Source of the DNA: Actinacidiphila oryziradicis | Lineage (GTDB): Bacteria; Actinomycetota; Actinomycetes; Streptomycetales; Streptomycetaceae | NCBI RefSeq assembly: GCF_005047355.1 | Contig: NZ_SUMC01000004.1 | Location: 62,001 to 126,000, forward strand | Direction of reading: 5' to 3' | DNA: 64,000 nucleotides | In this document: one piece after another, positions 27,063 to 44,484 of the stretch | How the letters are laid out: the number at the start of each line of letters is the position of its first letter | How positions within the stretch are numbered: the stretch's first letter is position 1 | Notes under the pieces: generated by a model | The model's input: the letters and a program-made list of their open reading frames with translations, nothing else | Database searches by the model: none | What the model was told of the DNA's origin: nothing | Translations under genes and position numbers: made by a program

Positions 27063-28354
27063 GCCGCCACCGCCCCGGACCGGGTGAGCACCATCGCGCA
27101 CTGGAAGCCGCCGAAGCCGCTGGCGGTGGTCAGCGCGACGTCGGTGCGCTGCTCGCGGGCGGTCAGCGGAACGTAGTCGAGGTCGCAGTCCGGGTCGGGG
27201 GTGCGCAGATTGGCGGTGGGCGGCAGCACGCCGTGCTCGATGGCGAGGGCGCAGGCGGCTATCTCCATCGCGCCGATGGCGCCCAGCGGGTGGCCGACCA
27301 CAGACTTGATCGAGCTGATAGGGGCGCGACGGGCGTGTTCGCCCAGTGCGGCCTTGAACGCGGCCGTCTCATGCCGGTCGTTCTGCGGGGTGCTCGATCC
27401 GTGGGCGTTGATGTAGTCCACGTCCCCAGGGGCGACGCGGGCCCGTTCCAGGGCGCAGCGGATGGCCTCGGCCAGATCCAGGCCGTCGTCCTTGAGCGCG
27501 GCCATGTGGTGTGCGTTGCTGCGGCCCGCGTAGCCGGCTATCTCGCAGTAGATGTGGGCGCCGCGGCGCAGGGCGTGCCCGAGCTCCTCGACGATCAGTA
27601 CGGCGGCGCCCTCGGCGAGGACGAATCCGTCGCGGTTCCGGTCGAAGGGGCGGGAGGCGTGGGCGGGGTCGTCGTTGTTCGGCGAGGTCGCCCTGATGAC
27701 GTCGAAGGCGGCCACGGCGGTCGGGGTGATCGGCGCTTCGGACGATCCGGCGATCACGATGTCGGCGGAGCCCTCCTCGATGAGCGCGGCGGCATGTCCG
27801 AGGGCGTCCAGACCGGTGGTGCAGCCGTTGGACACCAGTCCGACCGGGCCTTCCGCGCCGGCCAGCCTGGCGGTCTCTGCGGCGAGGGTGCTGGGCACGA
27901 GCGACTCGTAGGCGTACGGCATCACGTAGGTGTGGTCGACCACCCACAGCTTGCCGCGATCGCTGAGCACGACGTACTCGCTCTCCATCCGGGTGGCCGG
28001 GCCGACGGCCGTGCCCATGCTCACCCCGAGCCGGGCGGGGTCACAGGCTTCGGTTTCGAGGCCGCTGTCCTCCAGCGCCTCACGGGCGGCCACCGTGCCG
28101 AGCTGTACGCAGCGGTCCATCCGGCGGATGTCGCGGGGAGTGAGGCCATACTCGGCGGGGTTGAAATCGCATTCACCGGCGATGCGCGACCGCAGGCCGG
28201 TGGGGTCGAAGAGGGTGATGCCGCGGATGGCGCTGACGCCCGAGGTGATGCGCTCCCAGAACGCCTTGCGGCCGTTGCCGCCGGGTGCGATGACGCCCAG
28301 GCCGGTAACGGCCGCCCGGCGGCGTCCTGTTGGCGTTGTGCCGGCTATTGCCAT
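27059..28354 (-). CDS. Type II polyketide ketosynthase (KS alpha)
   Basis: A 431-residue beta-ketoacyl synthase of the aromatic polyketide type. It has the nucleophilic cysteine in VSNGCTTGLDALG, the histidine of NAHGSSTPQNDRHETAAF and the second histidine/lysine in IKSVVGHPLGAIGAME. The QNDRHETAAF sequence is typical of minimal type II PKS enzymes rather than FabF. The start is ATG 28354 with GGAGGCCACAACC in front; longer in-frame starts up to 28429 lack a ribosome site. It forms a coupled pair with the chain-length factor. An acyl carrier protein is required in trans, and none is coded in this window. Confidence 0.93.
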   Translation of the reverse strand: MAIAGTTPTGRRRAAVTGLGVIAPGGNGRKAFWERITSGVSAIRGITLFDPTGLRSRIAGECDFNPAEYGLTPRDIRRMDRCVQLGTVAAREALEDSGLETEACDPARLGVSMGTAVGPATRMESEYVVLSDRGKLWVVDHTYVMPYAYESLVPSTLAAETARLAGAEGPVGLVSNGCTTGLDALGHAAALIEEGSADIVIAGSSEAPITPTAVAAFDVIRATSPNNDDPAHASRPFDRNRDGFVLAEGAAVLIVEELGHALRRGAHIYCEIAGYAGRSNAHHMAALKDDGLDLAEAIRCALERARVAPGDVDYINAHGSSTPQNDRHETAAFKAALGEHARRAPISSIKSVVGHPLGAIGAMEIAACALAIEHGVLPPTANLRTPDPDCDLDYVPLTAREQRTDVALTTASGFGGFQCAMVLTRSGAVAA

Positions 28355-28749
28355 GGTTGTGGCCTCCCCGTTGTGGACCCGTAGTGAATTGCCCGGAATC
28401 AAATGATGTGCGGGATATACGGGCCGCATGAACGGTGGCAGGGCCCCGTTGAAACGGTCAAGAGTGGACGGAGGCGGACAACTGCCTGGGTGGGGCGGAG
28501 TAGGGCGCAGGGGTGTACGTGCCGGGCGGGAACAGCGGGGTCGTCCTGATCCGTACTGCGAGTGAGGGGGCGTGCGGAGGCCGGCCGCGTGCGCCGGTGG
28601 CCGCCCACCGGCGCATCGCCCGAGGCTCCGGCGACAGAGCCGAACGCCTGTCCATGTTGCGCCGGCCTGGTGGGGCCGGCCACTCGATTCATTTACCGCC
28701 GTGCAACTGATCGTTCGAACGGATCACGCCGATTTGGCTGGCCGCCCCA
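28355..28749. other. Gene-free gap upstream of the KS pair
   Basis: No convincing gene: the short frames on both strands are Arg/Pro-rich shadows. It must hold the promoter of the KS alpha/CLF pair. The one notable motif is the palindrome GTTCGAAC with flanking TGATC/GGATCA at 28708-28726, which lies far upstream of the KS start and close to the 3' end of the allophanate hydrolase gene. Confidence 0.5.
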
Positions 28750-30405
28750 TCAGCGGCCGCCTGCGAGGTAGCGGCGCCAGCCGCCGTGGGCGGTGATGTC
28801 GTCGGCGCCCGTGATCGCTTCGGCTTCGCAGAGGAAGCCCGCCACCTCGCTGCCGTCCGCGAGCGCGACCCTGCCGATCGCCATCGGGCTGGGCAGCGCG
28901 GCGACGAGGGCGCCCAGGCCCTCCACCGGCAGCTCCCAGACCTCGGCCTCGATGGCGGCGCCGTCCTGGGAGGTGCGTACGAGACCGGGCTTGGGCGGCG
29001 TGGTCTCCAGCGCGTACAGCCGGTACGCCGGAGCGGTGGCCGTCGTCGCGGCCAGCCGGCCGCCCAGGGCGCGGAGTTGCCCGTTGAGCGGCTGGCCCGA
29101 CAGGTGCGCGCCGACCACGGCGAGCCGGACGGCCGGTGTCAGCAGCCGGGCGATCGCCGCCGCCCGCTCGTCGGTGAAGGCCCGGCCGACCAGCATCACC
29201 CCGAACGGCAGACCGTTCACCTCGCCGGCCGGGACCGCGATGCCGCACATGTCCAGCAGATTGGTGGAGTTGGTGAAGCGCCCCAGCCGGGCGTTCGCGG
29301 CCAGCGGCTCGGCGGCCACCTCGGCGATGGTCGGGTGACCGGGCGCGGTGGGCAGCAGCAGGGCGTCGGCGTCGCCGAGCTCGGCCATGGCCCGCGCATG
29401 GAGAGCGGCCAGTCGGTCCTGGTCGGCGAACAGGCGGTGCGCCGGGAGGTCGCGTGCGGCGGTGATGATGCGGGCGACGGTCGGGTCGAGATCGGACGCG
29501 TCGGCGTGCTTGTCGATAAAGCTACCTACGGCGGTGTAGCGCTCCGCGACGAACGCGCCCTCGTACAACAGCACGGCCGCCTCCGAGAAGGGGGTGAGAT
29601 CGATGGGCAGCAACTCCACACCCGCGTGCGCGAGCCGCGCCACCGCCGCCTCGTACGCCTCCGCCCAGCCCGGGTCCAGCTCACCGAGCTGCTCGGCCGG
29701 CGGTACGGCCACCCGCCACGGCCCGGGCCGCCGTGCCCCGGACGCGGCGATCTCGCGGGCCGGGGGCGCGGCCAGGTGCGCCAGGGCACGCTCGGCCTCC
29801 GGGATCGTACGGGCGAATACAGTGACGCAGTCCAGGCTCGCGCACGCCGGCACCACGCCCTCGGTCGGTACCACACCCCGGGTCGGCTTGATGCCGACGA
29901 TCCCGTTGAACGCCGCCGGCACCCGGCCCGAGCCCGCCGTGTCCGTGCCCAGCGCGAAATCCGCGATGCCCAGCGCCACGGCGACCGCCGAACCCGAGCT
30001 GGAGCCCCCGCTGACCCGCTCCGGGTCGCGCGCGTTCCGTACGGCGCCGTACGGGCTCCGCGTACCGACCAGACCGGTGGCGAACTGGTCCAGATTCGTG
30101 CTTCCCAGCACCACCGCCCCGGCTGCGCGCAGCCGAGCCACGGCGGGCGCGTCCGCTTCGGGCTCGTACGCGTAGGTGGGGCACCCGGCGGTTGTCGGCT
30201 GGCCGGCGATGTCGATGTTGCCCTTCACGGCAAAGACCGTGCCGGCCAGCGGCAGCGGCTCGCCTGCGGCGACGCGGGCGTCAACGGCCTTCGCCTCGGC
30301 TTCCGTTTCGGCCTGCGGGCGCAGCCCGACCCACACCTCCGGCCGGTCGACCTCCGCGATCCGCGCGTACGCTGCACGCACGCGGCCCAGGGCTGTTCCG
30401 GTCAT
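28750..30405 (-). CDS. atzF: Allophanate hydrolase
   Basis: This enzyme hydrolyses allophanate to ammonia and CO2, the last step of urea or guanidine assimilation by the carboxylase route. The 551-residue protein has the amidase-signature domain (to about 440) with the catalytic lysine in VFAVKGNID and the serines in VSGGSSSGSAVAVALG and GTDTAGSGRVPAAFNG. It is followed by the AtzF C-terminal domain (about 455-551) ending HGGWRRYLAGGR. ATG 30405 has AAGGAGACACG upstream. Its partner, the carboxylase, is upstream on the same strand, but 740 bases of repeat-rich DNA lie between, so the operon has probably been stretched by insertion. Confidence 0.95.
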   Translation of the reverse strand: MTGTALGRVRAAYARIAEVDRPEVWVGLRPQAETEAEAKAVDARVAAGEPLPLAGTVFAVKGNIDIAGQPTTAGCPTYAYEPEADAPAVARLRAAGAVVLGSTNLDQFATGLVGTRSPYGAVRNARDPERVSGGSSSGSAVAVALGIADFALGTDTAGSGRVPAAFNGIVGIKPTRGVVPTEGVVPACASLDCVTVFARTIPEAERALAHLAAPPAREIAASGARRPGPWRVAVPPAEQLGELDPGWAEAYEAAVARLAHAGVELLPIDLTPFSEAAVLLYEGAFVAERYTAVGSFIDKHADASDLDPTVARIITAARDLPAHRLFADQDRLAALHARAMAELGDADALLLPTAPGHPTIAEVAAEPLAANARLGRFTNSTNLLDMCGIAVPAGEVNGLPFGVMLVGRAFTDERAAAIARLLTPAVRLAVVGAHLSGQPLNGQLRALGGRLAATTATAPAYRLYALETTPPKPGLVRTSQDGAAIEAEVWELPVEGLGALVAALPSPMAIGRVALADGSEVAGFLCEAEAITGADDITAHGGWRRYLAGGR

Positions 30406-30515
30406 CGTGTCTCCTTACGTTTCGTTCCGGCTGCGGTACCGGGTGCCTAGTCTGTGCGGCTGGGCCGGCGCTGTTTCGTCCCGTCTGCCGGGGTTGCCGA
30501 GCCTCCCCCAGCTAC

Positions 30516-31081
30516 CTCCCCCAGCCTTCGGCCGGGAGGTGCCCCCAGGAGGTGCCCCCACAAGCGCCGGACGGGCTGGGTTTGTCCGGCCGGACCGGCG
30601 CGGCAGGTTGTCCCGGCTGCGGGCCTCCCGGTTCCGCCCCGTCTGCCGGGGTTGCCGATCCGTCCTCAAGCGCCGGACGGGCTGGGTTGTCGTGCTGGCC
30701 GGCACGCCGGGTTGTGGTCGGGGTCGGGGCCGCTGTGGGGTGATCTCCTCGGGGCTCGCGCGTGCGGGTCCACAGCACACTTGCCCGGGGTGCATGTGCT
30801 CGTCCTCTGCGGGGACACCCCGGCGCGTCCCCTCCCGGCCGGACAGGCGCGTGACGCCCCGCTCGTGGCGGAGACCGTAAAACCCACGCACCGCACGCCG
30901 GGGTGACCGAAGGACACCACGCACCGCAAGGCGCCGTGGCGGCCGGAGGGGGCGGTGCAGGGGTGTCCCCGCAGATTTTGTCGCCGTATGCCGGTGGCGA
31001 TGGCGCATGGTGCGGGGGGTGCTGGCGACACTGTCGTGGGGGCACCTCCTGGGGGCACCTCCCGGCCGAAGGTTGGGGGAG
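30516..31081. repeat. Repeat-rich 566-bp block flanked by 45-base inverted repeats
   Basis: Left arm 30516-30560 and right arm 31037-31081 are inverted copies with one mismatch. Each contains the cccccagccttcggccggga / ggtgccccca element also seen at 1441. Inside and just before the block, gtctgccggggttgccga occurs at 30483 and 30641, and aagcgccggacgggctgggt at 30562 and 30668. No gene is open. The whole 739-base gap between the carboxylase and allophanate hydrolase genes contains nothing else I can recognise. It resembles a short non-autonomous (MITE-like) insertion or accreted Streptomyces intergenic repeats. Confidence 0.65.
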
Positions 31082-31144
31082 AGTCACCCCGGAGGCGCCA
31101 CCGACCCACCCCCCGAACAAAGCGCACCCCACCCCCGGCGCAGG

Positions 31145-34100
31145 TCACGCTGGGGCCAGCGTCAGCAGAACCGTTCCGGCGTCGACTTGGTCCCCGGGGC
31201 CGACGAGGATGTCGGCGACGACGCCATCCCCGGGGGCCTCGACGGCCGACTCCATCTTCATCGCCTCCAGGGCGACCAGCTTCTGCCCGGCGCGCACCCG
31301 CTCGCCGGGCCGCACCGCGATCTGCCAGACGCTCGCCGCGAACTCCGCCTCGACCGTCCGGCCGCCCGCAGGGACGGCGATGTCGCCCGATGGAGCGGCG
31401 GGCACCGCGACCCGCTCGGCGCGGGCGAATTCACCGGATGCCTCCCATGCGTCCCGTTCCGCCGCGAAAGCGGCACCCTGTCGAGCCCGGAACTCAGCGA
31501 TCGAGTCCGCGTTCGAGGCCAGAAACCGCTTGTGGTCCGCGAGAGCGAACTCGCCCTCCTCGATCCGTAGCTCCAGCCGCCCGGCAGCCATGTCGGCCCG
31601 CATGTCAAGGAGCTCGTCAGCTTCGACCGGATACCACTTGATGCGGTCGAAGAAGCGCAGCAGCCAGGGGCGCTGCGGCTGCTGCCAGCCGGACCAGACC
31701 TGCACCGTACGCCCCACGAACTGGTAGCCGCCGGGCCCTTCCATGCCGTAGACGCAGAGATAGGCCCCGCCGATGCCGACGGAGTTCTCGGCGGTCCAGG
31801 TCCGCGCGGGGTTGTACTTGGTCGTCACCAGCCGATGCCGCGGGTCGAGCGGGGTGGCGACCGGGGCGCCCAAGTACACATCGCCGAGCCCCAGTACCAG
31901 ATACTCGGCGTCGAAGACGGTCCGGTACACATCATCGACCGAATCCAGCCCGTTGATGCGGCGGATGAACTCGATGTTCCAGGGACACCAGGGCGCGTCG
32001 TCCCGAACCCCCGCCATATAGCGGGTGATGGCTTCACGTGTCGCCGGATCATCCCACGACAACGGCAGGTGGACCGTACGGCTGGGCACCACCAGCTCGT
32101 CGGCGGCCGGTAGTTGCTTCTCCGCCTCCTGTACGAAATCGAGCAGCTTGGCGGTGGGAAGGACCTGCGGGTCGACGTGGACCTGGAGCGACCGGATACC
32201 GGGCGTGAGATCCACGACGCCGGGGAGCCGTTCGGCGGCAAGCCGCTCCGCGAGCGCGTGGACACGCATGCGCAGGGCGAGGTCGAGCTGCATGGGGCCG
32301 TACTCGATGAGGAGGTTGTCGTCGCCGCTGCGCCGGTAGGTCACGGCCGGGCGTGTGTCGGACTCCGGGACACGCCCGAGCACGCCGCCGTCGCGCACTA
32401 CAGGGCGCGATGTCCCGTCCTCCATGACGGGGACGAAGGAGACGGTGTCGCCGGGCCGCAGCTGGCCGAGCTTCCAGCGCTCGGCGGTGACGATCGTCGC
32501 GGGGCAGACGAAGCCGCCGAGCGACGGGCCGTCGGGGCCGAGCAGCACGGGCATGTCACCGGTGTAGTCGACGGCGCCGACGGAGTACGGGGTGTCGTGG
32601 ATGTTGGAAGGGTGCAGTCCGGCCTCCCCGCCGTCACTCCGTGCCCACCGGGGTTTGGGGCCGACGAGGCGGACGCCGGTGCGTGCGGAGTTGAAGTGGA
32701 CCTTCCAGGCGGCGGCGTAGAAGTCGCGTATGTCGTCCTCGGTGAAGAACTCGGGCGCGGCGTGCGGCCCTTCGACGGCACCGATTGCCCACTCGGTGCC
32801 GAAGTCCGGCCGCTGCGACCGCGGCACGGGGAAGCCCGTTGCTGTACGGCCACCGCCGTGCAGTACATCGCCCGCTCGCAGCGCCCGCCCACCGTGGCCG
32901 CCGAAGCGGCCCAGTGTGAAGGTGGCAGCGCTACCGAGGAAACCGGGCGTGTCGAGGCCGCCCGCGAAGAGGACGTAGGTCCGCAGCCCGGACCCGTCCG
33001 GTGCCGGGACGTCCAGCACCGAGCCCGCCGGGACGGTGAACGGCTCCCACTGGGGGACCGGCTGCCCGTCGACGGTGACGGCGGCCGGAGCGCCGGTCAC
33101 GCACACGGTCGTGGCATGGGTGAAGCGCAGTTGCGGCCCCTGGATGGTGCACTCCAGGCCGGGCGCGCCCTCGTCGTTGCCGAGCGAGGTGTTGCCCAGC
33201 CGGAAGGAAAGGTCGTCCATCGGTCCGCAGGGCGGCACGCCGACATGCCACAGGCCCGTCCGGCCCGGCCAGTCCTGGACGGTGGTGAGGGTGCCGGGGC
33301 GGACCACTTCGATCCGGGCGGTGGGGTCGGTGATGGCGTCCAGCGAAGCAGTGGTGTGCGTGGCCGCGCGCAGCCCGGGCGTGTCGAGGGCGGCGCGCAG
33401 CAGTCCGAGGTTGGTCTCTATGCCGTCGATACGGGTGGCGTCCAGGGCCCGTGCGAGCCGGTCGAGGGCGTCGGCGCGGTCCGTGCCGTGGGCGATGACC
33501 TTGGCGAGCATCGGGTCGTACGAGGTGGTGACCTCGGTGCCGGCCGCCACCCAGGCGTCCACGCGTACGCCTTCGGGGAAGCGGACCTCGGTAAGCAGGC
33601 CCGCGCTCGGCCGGTGACCGCGGCTGGGGTCCTCGGCGTAGATCCGGGCCTCGACGGCGTGACCGCTCGGCGGGCCGGGGTCCATGTCGAAAACCTCGCC
33701 CTGGGCGAGCCGCAGCATCCACTCCACCAGGTCTGTGCCGTAGGTCTCCTCGGTGACCGGGTGCTCCACCTGGAGGCGCGTGTTGACCTCCAGGAAGTAC
33801 GCCTCGCCGCGCGCGGTGTCGTACACGTACTCCACGGTGCCGGCCGACCGGTAGTCCACGGAGGCGCACAACGCGCTCGCGGCGGTGGCGAGCTGTTCGC
33901 GCACAGCGTTGGGCAGCCCGGGCGCCGGTGCCTCCTCCAGCACCTTCTGGTTGCGCCGCTGCAAGGTGCAGTCCCGGTCCCCGAGCGTGACCACACGCCC
34001 GAGACCGTCGCCGAAGACCTGCACCTCCACATGCCGGGCGCGCTCGACCAGCCGCTCCAGGAACACCCCGGCGGAGGAGAAGCTGGCGGCGGCGACCCGC

Positions 34101-34654
34101 TGCACCCGCTCCCAGGCGTCGGCGAGTTGAGCCGCGTCATGGCACGCCTGCATGCCGATGCCGCCGCCTCCGCCGGTGGCCTTGAGCATCACCGGGTAAC
34201 CGAGTGTTCCGGCTGCCTCGATTGCGGTTTCCACATCGGCAAGGAGCCCGGTGCCGGGCAGCAGCGGCACACCGGCCGCTTCCGCGGCGGCCCGGGCGGT
34301 GTGCTTCGCGCCGAACAGCTCCAGCTGGCGCGGGGTCGGCCCGACGAAGACCAGGCCGGCTGCTTCGCAGCGCCGGGCGAACCCCGCGTCCTCGGAGAGG
34401 AATCCGTAGCCGGGGTGGATGGCGCCGGCCCCGGTCGCGCGGGCGGCCTCCAGTATCGCTTCGGCGTTGAGGTAGCTGGCCTTCGCGGGCGCCGGGCCGA
34501 GCCGTACGGCCTCGTCGGCAAGCCGCACGTGAGGTGCTGGGCGGTCGGGGTCGGAGTACACCGCCACCGTACGCAGTCCCATGCGACGGGCCGTGCGGAT
34601 GACGCGGGCGGCGATCTCGCCCCGGTTGGCGACCAGCAGGGTGTCGAAGGTCAT
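31145..34654 (-). CDS. Biotin-dependent urea/guanidine carboxylase
   Basis: A 1169-residue single-chain carboxylase. It starts with a biotin carboxylase domain (1-450: LLVANRGEIAARVIRTARR, ATP loop KATGGGGGIGM, EVNTRLQVEHPVTE). The carboxyltransferase (about 465-1030) is built from allophanate-hydrolase-subunit-2-like and -1-like halves. A C-terminal biotinyl domain carries biotin-acceptor Lys near 1133 in ALEAMKMESAV. It is ATP-dependent. Enzymes of this architecture carboxylate urea, but those coded with two DUF1989 genes have been shown in other bacteria to carboxylate guanidine. The ATG overlaps the preceding stop by ATGA. The product passes through DUF1989 proteins to allophanate hydrolase. 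Confidence 0.93.
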   Translation of the reverse strand: MTFDTLLVANRGEIAARVIRTARRMGLRTVAVYSDPDRPAPHVRLADEAVRLGPAPAKASYLNAEAILEAARATGAGAIHPGYGFLSEDAGFARRCEAAGLVFVGPTPRQLELFGAKHTARAAAEAAGVPLLPGTGLLADVETAIEAAGTLGYPVMLKATGGGGGIGMQACHDAAQLADAWERVQRVAAASFSSAGVFLERLVERARHVEVQVFGDGLGRVVTLGDRDCTLQRRNQKVLEEAPAPGLPNAVREQLATAASALCASVDYRSAGTVEYVYDTARGEAYFLEVNTRLQVEHPVTEETYGTDLVEWMLRLAQGEVFDMDPGPPSGHAVEARIYAEDPSRGHRPSAGLLTEVRFPEGVRVDAWVAAGTEVTTSYDPMLAKVIAHGTDRADALDRLARALDATRIDGIETNLGLLRAALDTPGLRAATHTTASLDAITDPTARIEVVRPGTLTTVQDWPGRTGLWHVGVPPCGPMDDLSFRLGNTSLGNDEGAPGLECTIQGPQLRFTHATTVCVTGAPAAVTVDGQPVPQWEPFTVPAGSVLDVPAPDGSGLRTYVLFAGGLDTPGFLGSAATFTLGRFGGHGGRALRAGDVLHGGGRTATGFPVPRSQRPDFGTEWAIGAVEGPHAAPEFFTEDDIRDFYAAAWKVHFNSARTGVRLVGPKPRWARSDGGEAGLHPSNIHDTPYSVGAVDYTGDMPVLLGPDGPSLGGFVCPATIVTAERWKLGQLRPGDTVSFVPVMEDGTSRPVVRDGGVLGRVPESDTRPAVTYRRSGDDNLLIEYGPMQLDLALRMRVHALAERLAAERLPGVVDLTPGIRSLQVHVDPQVLPTAKLLDFVQEAEKQLPAADELVVPSRTVHLPLSWDDPATREAITRYMAGVRDDAPWCPWNIEFIRRINGLDSVDDVYRTVFDAEYLVLGLGDVYLGAPVATPLDPRHRLVTTKYNPARTWTAENSVGIGGAYLCVYGMEGPGGYQFVGRTVQVWSGWQQPQRPWLLRFFDRIKWYPVEADELLDMRADMAAGRLELRIEEGEFALADHKRFLASNADSIAEFRARQGAAFAAERDAWEASGEFARAERVAVPAAPSGDIAVPAGGRTVEAEFAASVWQIAVRPGERVRAGQKLVALEAMKMESAVEAPGDGVVADILVGPGDQVDAGTVLLTLAPA

Positions 34655-35268
34655 GAGGCGGCGCCTTCGGCGATCGTCATCAGCACCGGGGTCGGGTCGA
34701 AGCCGTTGCAGGGGTTGTTGATCTGCGGGCAGTTGGAGACCAGGACCAGAACATCCGTCTCGGCGCGGAGTACAACCCGCAGCCCGGGGGCGGAGATGCC
34801 GTCGACGATGCCGAGGGTGCCGTCCGCCTCGACCGGCACATTCATGTACCAGTTGATGTTGCTGACGAGGTCGCGCTTGCCGAGGCCGTACTTGGCGCCC
34901 TCGGCCAGGAAGTTCTCCACGCAGGCGTGCTGCGACCAGGTGTGGTGGCCGTAGCGCAGAGTGTTGCTCTCCTTGGAGCAGGCACCGCCGACGGTGTCGT
35001 GGCGGCCGCAGGTGTCCTCGACGACGGTCATGAGCGGGGTGTGCTCGTTCGAGAGCAGCACGCTGCCGGTTGTCAGGAAGATGTTGCCCTGGGCGTGGAT
35101 GGTGTCGGGGGCGCTGTAGCGGACAGCGGTGTCATGGGCGTCGTAGAGGAGGCAGTCGACGGCCTGGTTGCCGCCGAGGTCGGTGATGGTGAGGTGCTGG
35201 CCCCTGCGAACGACGGCGGACCAGGGGGCGCGGGCGGCGACGATGGTCTCGCTCAGGGTCTCGGTCAC
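34651..35268 (-). CDS. DUF1989 protein, likely carboxyguanidine deiminase subunit
   Basis: A 205-residue DUF1989 protein of the group formerly called urea carboxylase-associated protein 1. It has conserved cysteine/histidine-rich segments: QAVDCLLYDAHDTAVRYSAPDT, EDTCGRHDTVGGACSKESN and NCPQINNPCNGFDPTPV. Related proteins (CgdA/CgdB) form a heteromeric deiminase that removes one nitrogen from carboxyguanidine to give allophanate. The start is GTG 35268, four-base overlap (GTGA) with the upstream partner gene. Any longer frame reaching toward 35961 is antisense noise. Confidence 0.9.
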   Translation of the reverse strand: MTETLSETIVAARAPWSAVVRRGQHLTITDLGGNQAVDCLLYDAHDTAVRYSAPDTIHAQGNIFLTTGSVLLSNEHTPLMTVVEDTCGRHDTVGGACSKESNTLRYGHHTWSQHACVENFLAEGAKYGLGKRDLVSNINWYMNVPVEADGTLGIVDGISAPGLRVVLRAETDVLVLVSNCPQINNPCNGFDPTPVLMTIAEGAAS

Positions 35269-36101
35269 TGGATCCCCCTGGCGGCGAGGTGGTCGGCGGT
35301 GTTCAGGAAGGCGCGGCGGCCCTCGGGCGTGGCGTCCCACAGCGGATCGCCGGGGGCGGTCGGCCGGGCGCGCCAGGCCAGCACTTCCAGCGGCGACGAG
35401 ACGTACTCCGGGCGCGGGTCCACCGGGTGCGGCACATTGGCGATGAGTACCGTCAGCGGCTGCTCGGCGCGCAGTGTCACCGACGCCCCCGGTCCTGCCG
35501 AGCCTGTGAACTCCAGCTTTCCGTCCGCGACGACCCGGACCGCCTGGAAGAAGGAGAGCGACGGCGGCAGGTCGCGCGGCTCCAGGCCGTTCTTCAGCGC
35601 CGCCAGTTTCAGCAGCTCGCGCCCGGCGGGCGAGGCGCCCTGGGGGGAGCCGTCGCCGTACAGGGCTGTGTTGCGGGCGGCGGTCGATGTGCCGCAGAGG
35701 GCGTCGTGCTTCCCGCTGCTGTCCGCGACGACTGAGGCGAGCACCCGGCCCTGGTCGGAGAGGAGCAGATGGCCCTCTGCTATGTAGGCGTTCCAGAGCA
35801 CCTTGACCGTGTCGGCCGCGTTCAGCCGCTCCCAGGGCCGGTCTGCCACGTACAGCAGTAGGTGTGCGCAGGCGTCTCCCGCGAGGTCGGTCAGCCGGAG
35901 TTCCGTTCCGCGCGCGAGCACCTTGTGCGTGTAGCTGCCACCGGCCACGGTCTCCGCCCATACCAGCGCGTCCGGCGCGACGCCTTCAGGCGGCGCCGGC
36001 CAGGCACTGGCGGGCAGTACGGGCATGGCGTCGGCCCGTGTGCCCTCCTGGGCACGGGCATGGTCGCGGGCTCCATACGTCGTAACAGTCCCTGTCGCCA
36101 C
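35265..36101 (-). CDS. DUF1989 protein, second subunit of the likely deiminase
   Basis: A 278-residue relative of the next gene (former urea carboxylase-associated protein 2), first gene of the operon. Shared motifs include LTDLAGDACAHLLLYVADRPWERLNAADTVKV and SSGKHDALCGTST. The N-terminal 45 residues are extra. GTG 36101 follows AGGTGGAGCGCC. Its stop overlaps the start of the smaller DUF1989 gene, and that overlaps the carboxylase, so three proteins are made in step. The 22-base inverted repeat at 36129-36150 lies 28 bases upstream and is probably the operator of the divergent TetR protein. Confidence 0.9.
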   Translation of the reverse strand: MATGTVTTYGARDHARAQEGTRADAMPVLPASAWPAPPEGVAPDALVWAETVAGGSYTHKVLARGTELRLTDLAGDACAHLLLYVADRPWERLNAADTVKVLWNAYIAEGHLLLSDQGRVLASVVADSSGKHDALCGTSTAARNTALYGDGSPQGASPAGRELLKLAALKNGLEPRDLPPSLSFFQAVRVVADGKLEFTGSAGPGASVTLRAEQPLTVLIANVPHPVDPRPEYVSSPLEVLAWRARPTAPGDPLWDATPEGRRAFLNTADHLAARGIQ

Positions 36102-36128
36102 GGCGCTCCACCTCCGGCTCGACGGCTA

Positions 36129-36150
36129 ATTTCTATCGTTCGACAGAAAT
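36129..36150. promoter_or_regulatory. TetR-type operator, carboxylase operon
   Basis: ATTTCTATC-N4-GACAGAAAT, one mismatch between arms; extended by TA on either side it spans 26 bases. It lies between the divergent TetR gene and the DUF1989-carboxylase operon. A matching site stands before the permease gene at 44304-44325 (17 of 22 bases identical). Confidence 0.75.
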
Positions 36151-36249
36151 TACGGCCAGGTGACTTCGGCTCCGTTGCCCGCCTGTTTCGGACGGGTTAC
36201 CGAGCGCTCACCGCGCGGGGCGTCCGGGTGTGTGTGCGACGATCGAGCT

Positions 36250-36927
36250 GTGACCACCACGGGACGGCGCGTCGGACGGCCGCGTGCGACAGCGCGCGCT
36301 GAGAGCGGCCTCACGGCCCGCGAGGAACTCCTCGCGGCCGCCGGCCAACTCTTCACCACGCGCGGTTATACCGCCACGACCACGCGCGCCATCGCCGAAC
36401 GGGCCGGTATGCGGCAGGCGTCGATGTACCACTACTTCGGTGGCAAGGAAGACGTACTGGCCGCGCTGCTGGAGGGCACCGTCCGCCCCTCTCTGGACCT
36501 CGCCCTCGCGCTCGCCGCGCGGGACGACCTCCCGGCCGAGGCCCGGCTGTGGGCGCTGTGCCGCGCCGATGTCGCCCTGCTGTGCGGCGGCCCGCACAAC
36601 CTGGGCGCGCTCTACCTCCTCCCGGAGGTGCGGGCCGAACGCTTCGCGGACTTCCGCGCCGTGCGCGACGAGCTCAAGGCCGCGTACGCGGGACTGCTCG
36701 CCGCCACCGCCGCCGGCGCGGAACTCCCCGAAGACGAGCTCGCGCTCCGCGCCGACCTCGTCTTCGGCCTCATCGAGGGCGTTATCCTCATCCGTCGCGA
36801 AGCTCCGGACCGTGACCCGGCCGACTTCGCCTCCGCCACGGCGGACGCGGCACTGCGGGTCGCGGGCTGTGCGGAGCACGTCCTGCCCAAGCTCCGCCGC
36901 GAAGGCGAGGCGCTGCACGCCGGATGA
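36250..36927 (+). CDS. TetR-family regulator of the carboxylase operon
   Basis: A 225-residue repressor. The DNA-binding domain reads AREELLAAAGQLFTTRGYTATTTRAIAERAGMRQASMYHYFGGKEDVLAALL (helix-turn-helix at about 55-78); the rest is the ligand domain, ending around residue 220. GTG 36250 is the start, with a weak ribosome site; the in-frame upstream codons from 36160 would swallow the operator region. It is divergent from the carboxylase operon and probably represses it through the 36129-36150 palindrome and the permease through 44304-44325. The ligand may be the substrate or an intermediate such as guanidine or allophanate; this is inference. Confidence 0.88.
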   Translation: MTTTGRRVGRPRATARAESGLTAREELLAAAGQLFTTRGYTATTTRAIAERAGMRQASMYHYFGGKEDVLAALLEGTVRPSLDLALALAARDDLPAEARLWALCRADVALLCGGPHNLGALYLLPEVRAERFADFRAVRDELKAAYAGLLAATAAGAELPEDELALRADLVFGLIEGVILIRREAPDRDPADFASATADAALRVAGCAEHVLPKLRREGEALHAG

Positions 36928-37279
36928 CGCCGGCCTGGATGTGCGGAGCGCCTGCCGTGAGGCGCGAACGTTGCGAGGATACCCCCGGGTACCGGGCGGG
37001 GCTGATCTCCTCGCACGGCCGCCAGGTGCTCGCCGCCGGGCAGTGCCGTGGCGCAGGCACAGCCGCTTGCCCCGCGGGCGGCCGGCACCGCCAAACAGGC
37101 AGTCGTGCGCGACCTCTGGACCCCACCGCCCGCCCGTGTTGTCATGTCCACCGGAGCCCTGGGTTGCAACGTAGTAAACACCGCTTCGTGACGTGTGCTC
37201 CACACCGGGCGTCTGCAGCAGTGCCGCAGGCCGCGTCGGGTACCGGTCAGACCGCCGTTCAGGGACGAAGGAGCGTGTC
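36928..37279. other. Gene-free gap between TetR gene and glycosidase gene
   Basis: About 350 bases without a credible gene on either strand. It contains the 3' border of the nitrogen locus and the promoter of the secreted glycosidase. No repeat or hairpin longer than 8 bases was noticed. It may include the left edge of the accessory insertion. Confidence 0.45.
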
Positions 37280-39808
37280 GTGGTGAGGTCGGGCAGATGG
37301 TGGGGCGCGGTCGGGGCCGCAGCGTTGCTGGGCGGTCTTCTCAGCGGGCTGGGCGCGCCGCCCTCCGCGGCCGGGGTTCCGTCCGCGGCCGCCGCGTCGG
37401 CTTCGGCGGGCACGTCGTTCCTCGATCACGACGCGCTGTTGAGCGGCGTCCAGGACCCGGCGTGGTTCAAGGCGAACATCCCCTTCTTGGACGTGCCCGA
37501 CCAGCAGATCCGGGACGTGTACTACTACCGGTGGCAGACGTACAAGGAGCATCTGGTCTACACCGGGCCGGAGTACGGCTGGCTGTCGAGCGAGTTCCTC
37601 CAACCGGTCGGCTACGGCGCCCCGTACGGCGGGATCTCGGCCGCGGCCGGGCACCAGATCACCGAGGGGCGGTGGCTGCGCGACCAGTCGTATACCAAGG
37701 ACGACGTCGACTACTGGCTCGGCGGTCCGGGGCAGTTCCCCAAGCCGCAGACCGACGCCGTGAACGCGGACACCTCGGACTGGGCGCACGAGTACAGCTT
37801 CTGGGCGGCCAGTGCGGTGTGGCAGCAGATGCTGGCCACTGGCGACCGGGGCTTCGCGCAGTCGCAGGAGGCGTCGCTGGTCAAGCAGTACAATGGCTGG
37901 GCCAACCACTTCAACCAGTCGCTGGGCCTGTACTGGCAGGCGCCGGTGTGGGACGCGACGGAGTACTCCGCCTCGTCGTATGAGTCCTCCGACCCCTATC
38001 ACGGGGGCTACGGCTATCGGCCGACGATCAACGCCTACCAGTACGGCGACGCGCGGGCGGTCGCCGCGATCGCCGCCCTTTGGGGCGACACCGGCACGGC
38101 CGACGACTTCCAGGCCCGCGCCACCGCCCTGCAGAACGCGGTGCAGGCGCACTTGTGGGACGCGGGGCGGCAGTTCTACTACGGTGTGGCCCGGGACAAC
38201 AACCAGTCGCTGGGCAAGACCGGCAGCCGCGAGCTGATGGGCTACCTGCCCTGGATGTTCGACATGGCACCGGCCGCGAACGCCGGAGCGTTCGCCCAGC
38301 TCAAGGACTCCAACGGCTTCGCCGCCCCCTACGGGCCGACGACGGTGGAACGGCGCAGCCCCTGGTTCATGTACCAGGCCGGCAGTTGCTGCCACTGGGA
38401 CGGCCCCTCCTGGCCGTTCGCCGCCTCCCAGACCCTGACGGCGGCGGCGAACCTGCTGGAGGACTACCCGGCGCAGTCGGTCTTCTCCAGCAGCGACTAC
38501 GTCAACCTGCTGCACACCTACGCCGCCACCCAGTACCGGGGCGGCGTCCCCTACGTCGCCGAGGCCCACAACCCGGACAGCAACACCTGGCTGTACGACG
38601 CGAACGACCACAGCGAGGACTACAACCACTCCACCTACAACGACAACGTCATCTCCGGCCTGATCGGCCTGCGCGGCCAGAGCAACGACACCCTGGTCCT
38701 CAAGCCGCTCGCCCCGGCCACCTGGGACTACTTCGCACTGGAGAACACCCCGTACCACGGACACAACGTGACCGTGCTGTGGGACCGCACCGGCAGCCGC
38801 TACGGCCAGGGGGCCGGCCTGCACGTCTACGTCGACGGCAGCCAGGTCGCCTCCCAGGCGGGTCTCGGCGCGCTTACGGTCAACGTCGGCGCGCCGATCA
38901 CCCAGCCGAGCACGGGCACGATGGTGGACATCGCCGCCAACGGCCAGCGCTTCGCCTCGGGTCCGCAGCCCTTCGCCTCCTACACTTCCAGCTACGACAA
39001 CGTCTGGAACGGCGTCGACGGCATCATCTACCGCGAGGGCATCCCCGAGAACAGCCGCTGGACCTCATACGCCACCGGCAACGCCAGCGACTACTACGGC
39101 GTCGACTTCGGGCGCGACCAGAAGACGGGCGACGTGCGGCTGTACTTCTACGACGACGGCGGCGGGGTGCGGACCCCAGCCAGCTACGACCTGCAGTACT
39201 GGACCGGCACCGGGTGGGCCACCGTGCCCGGCCAGACCCGCAACCCCGTCGCGCCCACCGCGAACGCCCAGAACGAGATTACCTTCCCGGCCCTGACGAC
39301 CAGCCGGCTGCGCGTCGTGGCGCCCAACGCCGGCGGCGGCACCGGCTGGGGCCTGTCGGAATTCCAGGTCTGGGCCGCGCCCGTCTTCCAGATCGCCAAC
39401 GTCAACAGCGGCAAGCTCCTCGCGGTCGACCACGCCTCCCTGGCGGACAGCGCCAACGTGCAGCAGTACGCCGACACCGGCACACCGGACCACCTGTGGA
39501 AGCTCGTCAAGGCGGGCAGCGGCTGGTACAAGATCGTCAACGTCAACAGCGGCCTGCTGCTCGCCGTGCAGGGCGCCTCGACCGCGCTGAGCGCCCAGGT
39601 CCAGCAGTACCACGACAGCGGCACCAGCGATCACCTGTGGCGGCTGATCGACGCCGGCGGCGGCCAGTACAAGATCGTCAACCAGAACAGCGGCCTGCTG
39701 CTCGGCGTCGCCGGCATGTCCACCAGCGACAGCGCCAACGTCGTCCAGTACTCCGACAACGGCACCGCAGACCACCTGTGGACCCTGCGATCCGCCGCGA
39801 CCCCCTAG
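37280..39808 (+). CDS. Secreted (alpha/alpha)6 glycoside hydrolase with ricin-type lectin tail
   Basis: An 842-residue exported enzyme. A signal peptide (about 1-45, GRWWGAVGAAALLGGLLSG... AAASA) is followed by an MGH1/GH63-like alpha/alpha toroid (about 60-500) with WFMYQAGSCCHWDGPSWPFA and NHSTYNDNVISGLIGL. A discoidin-like beta-sandwich (about 590-710, YYGVDFGRDQKTGDVRLYFYDDGG) and three ricin-B repeats (from about 715; each ends DHLWKLV, DHLWRLI or DHLWTLR) complete the protein. It probably binds and cleaves a plant or microbial polysaccharide; the sugar is unknown. GTG 37280 follows AAGGAGCGTGTC. It lies inside the accessory block that separates the TetR gene from the permease. Confidence 0.88.
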   Translation: MVRSGRWWGAVGAAALLGGLLSGLGAPPSAAGVPSAAAASASAGTSFLDHDALLSGVQDPAWFKANIPFLDVPDQQIRDVYYYRWQTYKEHLVYTGPEYGWLSSEFLQPVGYGAPYGGISAAAGHQITEGRWLRDQSYTKDDVDYWLGGPGQFPKPQTDAVNADTSDWAHEYSFWAASAVWQQMLATGDRGFAQSQEASLVKQYNGWANHFNQSLGLYWQAPVWDATEYSASSYESSDPYHGGYGYRPTINAYQYGDARAVAAIAALWGDTGTADDFQARATALQNAVQAHLWDAGRQFYYGVARDNNQSLGKTGSRELMGYLPWMFDMAPAANAGAFAQLKDSNGFAAPYGPTTVERRSPWFMYQAGSCCHWDGPSWPFAASQTLTAAANLLEDYPAQSVFSSSDYVNLLHTYAATQYRGGVPYVAEAHNPDSNTWLYDANDHSEDYNHSTYNDNVISGLIGLRGQSNDTLVLKPLAPATWDYFALENTPYHGHNVTVLWDRTGSRYGQGAGLHVYVDGSQVASQAGLGALTVNVGAPITQPSTGTMVDIAANGQRFASGPQPFASYTSSYDNVWNGVDGIIYREGIPENSRWTSYATGNASDYYGVDFGRDQKTGDVRLYFYDDGGGVRTPASYDLQYWTGTGWATVPGQTRNPVAPTANAQNEITFPALTTSRLRVVAPNAGGGTGWGLSEFQVWAAPVFQIANVNSGKLLAVDHASLADSANVQQYADTGTPDHLWKLVKAGSGWYKIVNVNSGLLLAVQGASTALSAQVQQYHDSGTSDHLWRLIDAGGGQYKIVNQNSGLLLGVAGMSTSDSANVVQYSDNGTADHLWTLRSAATP

Positions 39809-42486: not shown

Positions 42487-42760
42487 ACATATGAGCCCCA
42501 CAGGGGGCGCATCCGTGCGGATGCCGAGAAGCTTCTCGTGGCGAGCGGGACAGACGTGCGTGTCCCGAATAAGTGCACGCTTCACAGTCTCCGGGACTTT
42601 TACGCCACGACGTTGATCACGAAGCGGGAGAACGTGAAGTTGGTTCAGGTCCGCCTCGGGCATTCGAAGCCGTCGATCACTCTCGACAAATACGTCGGCT
42701 TCTGGCCGACCGAGGAGGACACGACCGCGGCGGCTATCGAATCGGTTCTGGGAGAGCCGG
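42487..42760 (+). pseudogene. C-terminal remnant of a tyrosine integrase
   Basis: In the frame of 42538 the residues CTLHSLRDFYATTLITKR and VKLVQVRLGHSKPSITLD, then KYVGFWPTEEDTT, match the HxxR, LGH and tyrosine motifs of phage-type integrases. The normal N-terminal DNA-binding and first catalytic arginine regions are missing. The remnant ends within, and antisense to, the last codons of the permease gene. It marks the right border of the accessory block. It cannot be active alone. Confidence 0.75.
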
Positions 42761-44284
42761 AGCGGGTTCTTCGGCCGAGTGCACGCGTTGTGCACTCCGC
42801 CACCGGTACAGGGCCCCGGCGCCTACGGTGACCAGGAGGAACAGCACAGTGAACCACTGGAAGTACCAGTGGCCGCCGGCCGGGTCGTAGACGGCCGCAC
42901 GGGGCCAGGACAGGTTGACGGTCATGACCAGGCCGTAGACCAGTGCCAGAGCGTTGACCGGGACGCCCCAGCGGCCGAGCGAGAACAGCGGACGGCCGCT
43001 CTCGTCCGTACCGTCGGCGGTGCCGTCGGCGTACGTGCCGCGCAGGCGGCGCAGCAGCTGCGGGCCGGTCACCATCGCGTACGCGATGTAGAGCATCGCG
43101 ATGCAGGTGGTGCCGATGGCCAGGAAGGCGTCCGGGGACAGCAGGTTCAGCAGGCCGAGTGCCGCAGCGCCCACGCCGACCACCAGCACCGGGCCGGCCG
43201 GCATGCCGGTGCGCGGTGAGACCTTGGCGAGCCGGGCGGAGAAGGGCAGTACTCCGTCGCGCGCCATGGAGAAGAGCATTCGAGAACCGGCGGTCTGGAT
43301 GGCCAGTGTGGCCACCGCGATGGCCACCGTTACGTCCGCGAGCAGAGCCTTGCCGACGCCGTTGCCGAGGCTGCTGGTGAGCACATAGCTCAGCCCCTCG
43401 CTCGCCAGCCGTCCGTTGGCCAGGCTGGGCGCGGCCAGCAGACCGGCCAGCAGGAGGAGACCGCCGAGCACGCCCGCCGCGGCGAGCGCGGTGAGGATGG
43501 TGCGCGGCGCGGTGCGCCGGGGAGCGCGGGTCTCCTCGCTCATCTCGCCCGCGCTGTCGAAGCCGATCAGGACGTACGCGGCGGTGAACGAGCCGACCAG
43601 CAGCGCGCCGATCGCGCCGCCCTGACCGCCGGTGTGCAGGGTGACCCCCGGGCCGCGTTCGGCGTGGGTGAACAGCAGCACGATGATCAGACCCGCGCCG
43701 ATGATCTCGGCGGTGACGCCGATCCGGTTGATGGCGGACATGATGCGGATGTCCAGCAGATTCACGACAGTGGTGAGCACCAGCAGGATCAGGCCGAGCA
43801 GCGCCGCGTTGGCCGCGCCGGTGGAGGTGACGGGCGACGGGTCGCCGCCGGTCAACTGGAAACCGGACCAGATCGCGGGCAGCACGACCTGGAGCGCGAG
43901 CGCTGCCGCCGCGACGACGACGACCTGACCGATCACCATGATCCATCCGGCGAACCAGCCGAACGCGGGTGTACTGAGCCGGGTCGACCACTGGTAGATC
44001 GCGCCGGAGATCGGGTATCGGGCGGCGAGCTCGGCGAAGCACGCCGCGACCAGCAACTGCCCGAGCAGTACCGCAGGCCAGGTCCAGAAGAACGCCGCCC
44101 CGCCGAAGGAGTAGCCGAAGGCGAAGAACTGGAAGACGGTGGTCAGCACGGAGATGAAGGAGAAGCCCGCCGCGAAGGAGGCGTACCGCCCCATGCTCCG
44201 GTGCAGTTCCTGTCGGTAGCCGAACCCGGCGAGTTCGGCGGCTTCGGTGGCCTCGGCGTTGTGCGGCGGTGCGGTGGCGGCCAT
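42734..44284 (-). CDS. APC-family amino-acid/amine permease of the carboxylase system
   Basis: A 516-residue transporter with about twelve membrane helices. It begins ELAGFGYRQELHRSMGRYASFAAGFSFISVLTTVFQFFAFGY, the family signature of GABA/choline-type permeases that accompany urea-carboxylase loci in other Streptomyces. The conserved FDSAGEMSEETRAPRRTAPRTI loop is present. ATG 44284 has AGGGGTCCTCC upstream. The promoter carries the same 9-4-9 inverted repeat as the carboxylase operon, so one TetR protein probably controls both. The substrate (urea, guanidine or an amine) is not proven. Its last 20 or so codons overlap the antisense integrase remnant. Confidence 0.9.
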   Translation of the reverse strand: MAATAPPHNAEATEAAELAGFGYRQELHRSMGRYASFAAGFSFISVLTTVFQFFAFGYSFGGAAFFWTWPAVLLGQLLVAACFAELAARYPISGAIYQWSTRLSTPAFGWFAGWIMVIGQVVVVAAAALALQVVLPAIWSGFQLTGGDPSPVTSTGAANAALLGLILLVLTTVVNLLDIRIMSAINRIGVTAEIIGAGLIIVLLFTHAERGPGVTLHTGGQGGAIGALLVGSFTAAYVLIGFDSAGEMSEETRAPRRTAPRTILTALAAAGVLGGLLLLAGLLAAPSLANGRLASEGLSYVLTSSLGNGVGKALLADVTVAIAVATLAIQTAGSRMLFSMARDGVLPFSARLAKVSPRTGMPAGPVLVVGVGAAALGLLNLLSPDAFLAIGTTCIAMLYIAYAMVTGPQLLRRLRGTYADGTADGTDESGRPLFSLGRWGVPVNALALVYGLVMTVNLSWPRAAVYDPAGGHWYFQWFTVLFLLVTVGAGALYRWRSAQRVHSAEEPAPALPEPIR

Positions 44285-44325: not shown

Positions 44326-44484
44326 TAGGGGCGGCCCGTTTCGCCCGCATGACGCATCCGTATCGGCCGCGATCCGAATTCCTCACCGCTGGATTCCCGC
44401 GCTGTGCCGGGCCGCTCCGCGACGCACCCGGCCCCGGCCGAGGTGATGTCCTCAGCCGGGGCGGCGGCTACTTGTGTCGGCGGG

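What the first reader, a model, noticed from the sequence alone, without database searches (positions are those of the whole stretch)
28750..36927. The 'urea carboxylase' operon is more likely a guanidine-assimilation operon under TetR control
Two coupled DUF1989 genes precede the biotin carboxylase, with allophanate hydrolase following. In other bacteria such DUF1989 pairs (CgdA/CgdB) are carboxyguanidine deiminases and the carboxylase uses guanidine. Those loci are often controlled by a guanidine riboswitch. I see no such motif here; instead a TetR gene and palindrome stand at the promoter, suggesting a protein sensor of guanidine or a derivative.
Basis: partly seen in the sequence, partly recalled or inferred. 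Interest (0 to 1): 0.62.

Follow-up and report, generated by a model that had tools for sequence, protein, structure and literature searches.

The report
Guanidine-use operon under AmtR and GlnR
A soil actinomycete's genes labelled for breaking down urea carry the signature residues of enzymes that break down guanidine instead, and they are switched by two nitrogen-control proteins (AmtR and probably GlnR) rather than by the RNA guanidine switch that usually controls such genes.

Summary
In detail: a DUF1989 pair (CgdA/CgdB type), a biotin-dependent "urea carboxylase", an allophanate hydrolase, a divergent TetR gene and a palindrome are all present, and Rfam finds no riboswitch in the window. 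The substrate call is supported: the carboxylase has Asp at both published guanidine-carboxylase positions (D696 = K. lactis 1330; D925 = 1584). Among 102 loci, every carboxylase beside Cgd genes plus an AmtR gene or box has Asp1330 where that residue is covered; Asn occurs only in two loci without Cgd. The TetR protein is an AmtR orthologue (M. smegmatis AmtR 5E57, E=4e-40) and the palindrome is an AmtR operator. A second AmtR operator in the window lies 20 nt upstream of an APC permease, the probable importer. A GlnR-type array sits at fixed spacing from the AmtR box in all 24 aligned Streptomycetaceae promoters. The same gene set is already known as the AmtR regulon of S. avermitilis and M. 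smegmatis, but was read as urea metabolism, and AmtR ligand tests used urea and amino acids. New here is the reinterpretation as a guanidine pathway under GlnR/AmtR control. Whether AmtR senses guanidine is open and easily tested.

The parts
28750..30405 (-). allophanate hydrolase (amidase + AH_C domains), last pathway step
   Evidence: TIGR02713 699 bits (cut-off 511), PF01425 + PF21986
30406..31144 (.). about 740-nt repeat-rich spacer between carboxylase and hydrolase (46-nt inverted repeat 30516-30561 / 31036-31081)
31145..34654 (-). biotin-dependent guanidine carboxylase (annotated urea carboxylase), BC + CT + BCCP domains; D696 (= K. lactis 1330) and D925 (= 1584)
   Evidence: TIGR02712 1819 bits; alignment to 3VA7/5I8I; residue mapping
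34651..35268 (-). CgdB-type DUF1989 subunit (UAAP2); H89, C96, C115, C179, C186 invariant in 100 homologues
   Evidence: TIGR03424 337 bits
35265..36101 (-). CgdA-type DUF1989 subunit (UAAP1)
   Evidence: TIGR03425 307 bits
36130..36149 (.). AmtR operator TTTCTATCGTTCGACAGAAA
   Evidence: conserved at this place in related genomes
36163..36200 (-). GlnR-type four-box array GTAAC-n6-GAAAC-n6-GCAAC-n6-GAAGT upstream of cgdA
   Evidence: consensus from PMC10704036
36250..36927 (+). TetR-family repressor, AmtR orthologue, divergent
   Evidence: 5E57 E=3.8e-40, 5DY1 E=3.8e-30; tree
42734..44284 (-).
   Evidence: TIGR03428 'permease, urea carboxylase system' 634 bits, below its cut-off of 740; PF13520
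44305..44324 (.). second AmtR operator, 20 nt upstream of the permease start codon
   Evidence: conserved before the permease in relatives
44338..44364 (-). GlnR-like array GATAC-n6-GTCAT-n6-GAAAC upstream of the permease's AmtR box
   Evidence: weaker match than at cgdA

Best explanation
This is a nitrogen-scavenging regulon for guanidine. The APC permease imports guanidinium, the biotin enzyme carboxylates it with ATP and bicarbonate to carboxyguanidine, CgdA/CgdB deiminate that to allophanate, and allophanate hydrolase releases the remaining ammonia and CO2. Transcription is under double protein control: GlnR binds the four-box array and activates under nitrogen limitation, while AmtR binds the palindrome, which probably overlaps the start of transcription, and represses, possibly also regulating its own divergent gene. 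Shown here: gene content, signature residues, AmtR homology, operator and array conservation, absence of a riboswitch. Inferred: the chemistry, import, actual binding of GlnR and AmtR, and the signal that releases AmtR.
For: Asp at the 1330 and 1584 positions, the published criterion separating guanidine from urea carboxylases (PMC11410670; PMC12186494). In 102 loci, Asp1330 is present in all 92 with Cgd genes plus an AmtR gene or box in which the residue is covered; Asn occurs only in two loci, both without Cgd. AmtR: E=3.8e-40 to M. smegmatis AmtR, best non-AmtR hit 9e-12. Operators: two in the window against 0.01 expected; a perfect CTGTC-N4-GACAG box in the cgdA promoter of every related Streptomycetaceae locus read. 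GlnR-type GTAAC-n6-G[AC]AA[CT] at the same -54 offset from the AmtR box in 24 of 24 aligned promoters while the n6 spacers vary; background 0.035 per 265 nt at up to 1 mismatch. The AmtR-boxed permease is conserved and heads the operon in several mycobacteria. In M. smegmatis the orthologous gene set needs GlnR for nitrogen control and is derepressed without AmtR (PMC4222082).
Against: No enzyme, transport or binding assay exists for this locus. The Asp/Asn rule rests on few biochemically tested enzymes, and five related loci with Cgd-like genes carry Ile or Met at 1330, so the position is not binary. The window permease scores below the TIGR03428 cut-off. The allophanate hydrolase is 740 nt away, so its co-transcription is uncertain. 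No sigma-70-like promoter was found by a simple scan.
Confidence: 0.82

Rival explanations
1. It is what databases call it: a urea carboxylase / allophanate hydrolase operon for urea, with the DUF1989 proteins as accessory factors.
For: TIGR02712 'urea carboxylase' and 'urea amidolyase associated protein' names; published reading of the AmtR regulon as urea metabolism.
Against: Asp at the 1330 position; Asn is found only in the two relatives that lack the DUF1989 pair. The review states that guanidine is preferred over urea by most enzymes annotated as urea carboxylase, Asp marking the guanidine type.
Confidence: 0.07
2. On the signal: the AmtR-type TetR protein is itself a pathway-specific sensor, released from the operator by guanidine, carboxyguanidine or allophanate. 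Compatible with the best explanation.
For: AmtR regulons in M. smegmatis and, by box count, in this genome are very small and centred on this pathway. M. smegmatis AmtR does not carry the nitrogen signal, since nitrogen control survived its deletion and was lost without glnR. Only urea and amino acids were tested as ligands, because the pathway was thought to be for urea.
Against: C. glutamicum AmtR is reported to respond to adenylylated GlnK with no small-molecule effector found. Two further AmtR-type boxes in this genome lie before an NCS1 permease and an amidohydrolase near allantoicase, which fits general nitrogen scavenging. No ligand data exist.
Confidence: 0.33
3. On the signal: AmtR is released by a nitrogen-state protein such as adenylylated GlnK, as in Corynebacterium glutamicum. 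Compatible with the best explanation.
For: Sequence homology to C. glutamicum AmtR (E=3.8e-30) and the known GlnK mechanism there.
Against: Mycobacterial PII was reported not to act as regulator of the transcriptional nitrogen response. In M. smegmatis nitrogen control runs through GlnR.
Confidence: 0.2
4. The true substrate is another guanidino or amidine compound, such as methylguanidine, rather than guanidine.
For: Substrate is inferred from two active-site residues and gene content; Ile and Met variants exist at position 1330.
Against: No extra enzyme genes adjoin the operon; the residues and the gene set equal those of the guanidine pathway described.
Confidence: 0.07

Closest known systems
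AmtR regulon of Streptomyces avermitilis (sav_6697-6701 and sav_6709; Chen et al. 2013, seen here through PMC4222082 and PMC8864220)
   Same: Carboxylase, amidase and two unknown frames with divergent amtR (Table 3 and Figure 7 legend of PMC4222082); published AmtR consensus TAtCTGTCa-n2-cGACAGATAT resembles the boxes here; an amino acid permease gene at some distance in the same proposed regulon
   Different: Published as urea carboxylase and amidase genes of speculative function; no held paper contains both AmtR and guanidine
AmtR/GlnR-controlled msmeg_2184-2189 operon of Mycobacterium smegmatis
   Same: Permease, two unknown frames, carboxylase, hydrolase; GlnR-dependent nitrogen control with AmtR as secondary repressor; relatives such as M. 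wolinskyi carry Asp1330 and an AmtR box before the permease
   Different: In the mycobacterial relatives read here the carboxylase has only the CT domains, and amtR may lie elsewhere in the genome
Riboswitch-controlled guanidine carboxylase operons (Pseudomonas, Klebsiella, Raoultella)
   Same: Guanidine carboxylase, carboxyguanidine deiminase, allophanate hydrolase
   Different: Those use guanidine-I/II riboswitches and ABC importers; here a protein repressor and probable activator, an APC permease, no riboswitch
K. lactis urea amidolyase (3VA7, 5I8I)
   Same: Carboxylase domains and their order
   Different: Asn1330 there, Asp696 here; fungal enzyme works without DUF1989 partners (general knowledge)

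Membership tests
Guanidine carboxylase | TIGR02712 family membership | tested here: met
   1819 bits over 1304 cut-off
Guanidine carboxylase | Asp at K. lactis 1330 (TIGR02712 position 701) | tested here: met
   D696
Guanidine carboxylase | Asp at K. lactis 1584 (TIGR02712 position 956) | tested here: met
   D925
Guanidine carboxylase | Catalytic preference for guanidine | not testable with these tools
   needs an enzyme assay
Urea carboxylase | Asn at K. lactis 1330 | tested here: not met
   Asp in the window protein
Carboxyguanidine deiminase CgdA/CgdB | Adjacent pair of DUF1989 proteins of the UAAP1 and UAAP2 types | tested here: met
   TIGR03425 and TIGR03424 over cut-off
Carboxyguanidine deiminase CgdA/CgdB | Conserved Cys/His set in one subunit | tested here: met
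   H89, C96, C115, C179, C186 of CgdB invariant in 100 sequences; aligned with the DUF1989 domain of TMAO demethylase. That such residues bind metal is general knowledge of that enzyme, not tested
Carboxyguanidine deiminase CgdA/CgdB | Placement within the CgdA and CgdB clades of a PF09347 tree | not tested
   profile scores only; no tree of the whole family was built
AmtR | Sequence match to characterised AmtR above all other TetR proteins of known structure | tested here: met
   5E57 3.8e-40, 5DY1 3.8e-30, best non-AmtR 9e-12
AmtR | Monophyly of the window protein with characterised AmtRs in a tree | tested here: inconclusive
   other TetRs and L050 sit on very long branches near the Streptomycetaceae AmtRs
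AmtR | AmtR operator in the target promoter | tested here: met
   TTTCTATCGTTCGACAGAAA
AmtR | Release by adenylylated GlnK (C. glutamicum) | not testable with these tools
   reported for C. glutamicum; needs a protein interaction assay
GlnR-regulated promoter | gTnAc-n6-GaAAc-n6-GtnAC-n6-GAAAc boxes | tested here: met
   first two boxes perfect, third one mismatch, fourth two mismatches; fixed spacing conserved in 24 promoters
GlnR-regulated promoter | GlnR binds and activates | not testable with these tools
   needs EMSA or ChIP; shown for the M. smegmatis genes only as loss of nitrogen control without glnR
Guanidine riboswitch-controlled operon | Guanidine riboswitch aptamer upstream | tested here: not met
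   no Rfam match in the window

The most novel reading that the evidence does not exclude
AmtR of streptomycetes and mycobacteria is a protein sensor of guanidine (or of carboxyguanidine or allophanate). Its ligand was missed because tests were limited to urea and amino acids, and it takes the place of the riboswitch in the actinobacterial guanidine pathway, while riboswitches in the same genomes serve guanidine efflux genes.
Probability: 0.3. Interest if true: 0.75.

Novelty: new variant of a known kind. Interest (0 to 1): 0.52.

Why it matters
It joins two separate literatures. The AmtR regulon of streptomycetes and mycobacteria, described as urea metabolism with an unknown signal, becomes a guanidine-assimilation regulon. 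That tells experimenters which ligand to test on AmtR and which substrate to test on the enzymes. It also suggests that the same bacteria handle guanidine with two kinds of sensor: riboswitches before efflux genes and nitrogen-control proteins before assimilation genes.

Tried and rejected
Guanidine riboswitch at the operon: none. A Guanidine-I riboswitch in the window's own genome lies elsewhere, before a histidine-ammonia-lyase-like gene; Guanidine-III was not found in it. A new TetR family: rejected by the AmtR match. An AmtR tree with other TetRs as outgroup gave long branches and did not settle monophyly. Naming S. avermitilis and M. smegmatis directly: the single genome-contig scan did not return M. 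smegmatis itself, only relatives up to 87% identical in AmtR. Two primary papers on guanidine carboxylation and growth on guanidine are not in the held library, and the S. avermitilis AmtR paper was read only through other papers. No structure prediction was run, since the sequence evidence sufficed for family assignment.

Full report
The observation. On the minus strand, in order of transcription, they are a UAAP1-type DUF1989 gene (35265-36101), a UAAP2-type DUF1989 gene (34651-35268), a full-length biotin carboxylase with BC, CT and biotin domains (31145-34654) and an allophanate hydrolase (28750-30405). All four pass the curated NCBIfam cut-offs. The first three overlap; the hydrolase is separated by about 740 nt that hold a 46-nt inverted repeat. 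A TetR gene (36250-36927) is divergent, and a palindrome lies between it and the first DUF1989 gene. No Rfam family matches in the window, and none at E up to 5 in 27000-38000.

Urea or guanidine. The published criterion is Asp at K. lactis 1330 for guanidine carboxylase against Asn for urea carboxylase, with Asp at 1584 in addition (PMC11410670; the Asp/Asn rule also in PMC12186494). Alignment to the K. lactis structures places D696 at 1330 and D925 at 1584. I then read 102 carboxylase loci, the window's own included, from Actinomycetota. All 92 that have Cgd genes together with an AmtR gene or AmtR box, and in which the residue is covered, carry Asp at 1330. The two loci with Asn are full-length carboxylases without Cgd genes. 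Four loci of one distant family carry Ile and one carries Met, all with Cgd-like genes and without AmtR; one CT-only protein without Cgd carries Ala. These counts are not independent events: many genomes are close relatives, some may be the same species twice, and part of the set was found through AmtR. They agree with the guanidine assignment but do not replace an assay.

The regulator. The TetR protein matches M. smegmatis AmtR (5E57) at E=3.8e-40 and C. glutamicum AmtR (5DY1) at 3.8e-30, while the best non-AmtR structure is near 9e-12 (that 5E57 is the M. smegmatis protein is from general knowledge, the entry's own title being 'Transcription regulator AmtR'). The palindrome TTTCTATCGTTCGACAGAAA fits the published AmtR consensus TAtCTGTCa-n2-cGACAGATAT and the C. 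glutamicum CTAT-N6-ATAG (PMC8864220). A CTGTC-N4-GACAG box lies in the same place in every related Streptomycetaceae locus read. In this genome five 20-mers match an AmtR pattern with at most one mismatch: the cgdA promoter, a site 20 nt before an APC permease at 42734-44284 of the window, a site upstream of an NCS1-type permease, a site before an amidohydrolase near allantoicase, and one that falls inside a biotin carboxylase gene and is probably chance.

The permease. Its best NCBIfam match is TIGR03428 'permease, urea carboxylase system', below cut-off here (634 of 740 bits) and above it in M. wolinskyi (899 bits). In the mycobacterial and nocardial relatives whose amtR lies elsewhere, this permease is the first gene of the operon, directly after an AmtR box.

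A second regulator. Upstream of the AmtR box the cgdA promoter carries GTAAC-ccgtcc-GAAAC-aggcgg-GCAAC-ggagcc-GAAGT (36200 down to 36163), which fits the GlnR four-box consensus gTnAc-n6-GaAAc-n6-GtnAC-n6-GAAAc (PMC10704036). In 24 aligned Streptomycetaceae promoters the GTAAC and G[AC]AA[CT] boxes stand at exactly the same offset from the AmtR box while the spacers vary; matches with at most one mismatch are expected 0.035 times per promoter-sized stretch. The permease promoters have a phased array at a different but also fixed offset, as do those of Mycolicibacterium. This suits activation by GlnR and repression by AmtR, the arrangement shown experimentally in M. smegmatis, where nitrogen control needs glnR and AmtR is a secondary repressor with a very small regulon (PMC4222082). 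Binding of GlnR in this organism is inferred.

Riboswitches elsewhere. Among 39 genomes with a carboxylase gene, 21 have a Guanidine-III riboswitch over its cut-off and three a Guanidine-I. None is at an AmtR-type operon by coordinates; only G321, which has Met1330 and no AmtR, has one beside its carboxylase. Seven Guanidine-III sites that I opened precede genes whose best NCBIfam match is SugE, an SMR family to which guanidine exporters belong. So in these bacteria assimilation and efflux appear to be wired to different sensors.

What is known and what is new. PMC4222082 (2013) lists this gene set as the AmtR-associated operon, in S. avermitilis with divergent amtR, and calls the functions highly speculative. 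The same paper tested urea and amino acids as AmtR ligands without effect. No held paper contains both AmtR and guanidine. The library lacks most subscription journals, so a statement elsewhere cannot be excluded. The new part is the reinterpretation of the AmtR regulon as guanidine assimilation, the inclusion of the permease as guanidine importer, and the conserved GlnR/AmtR promoter layout in Streptomycetaceae.

Limits. No activity, binding or growth data were available. S. avermitilis and M. smegmatis carboxylases themselves were not read. The Ile/Met variants show that position 1330 is not a two-state switch. The tree of AmtR proteins had long outgroup branches and does not by itself prove monophyly.

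Noticed in passing
L183:3001-3115 (+), own genome contig C301, and L194:6001-6124 (-) in a congener: A Guanidine-I riboswitch (72-74 bits, gathering 63) stands before a histidine-ammonia-lyase-like enzyme (PF00221), an unusual partner for a guanidine switch.
   Followed up: partly
L065, L066, L067, L085 (carboxylase CT proteins): A family of CT-only 'urea carboxylases' with a Cgd-like pair, allophanate hydrolase and, in at least two, a permease-like gene upstream has Ile at the 1330 position, neither the urea nor the guanidine residue; substrate unknown.
   Followed up: partly
L086:12806-12914 (-) and its carboxylase: The only riboswitch-linked carboxylase seen here has Met at 1330, with a Guanidine-I aptamer upstream.
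   Followed up: no
L058-L064, L091-L166 (those with a carboxylase), L186-L193: Mycobacteriales versions of the carboxylase have only the carboxyltransferase domains; in the loci annotated in detail no adjacent biotin carboxylase or biotin carrier was found, so the biotin subunit must come from elsewhere if it is a carboxylase.
   Followed up: partly
own genome C41:3211-3230 and C157:123879-123898 (L184, L185): Two further AmtR-type boxes lie upstream of an NCS1 cytosine/purine/allantoin permease and of a TRZ/ATZ-like amidohydrolase near an allantoicase gene, suggesting a wider nitrogen-scavenging AmtR regulon.
   Followed up: partly
window 30516-31081: The spacer between carboxylase and hydrolase holds a 46-nt inverted repeat (98% complementary, 474 nt between the arms) and several direct repeats.
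   Followed up: no
window 25797-28429 (-): Two adjacent beta-ketoacyl synthase genes of FabF type, with the layout of a type II polyketide KS pair, lie directly downstream of the hydrolase.
   Followed up: no
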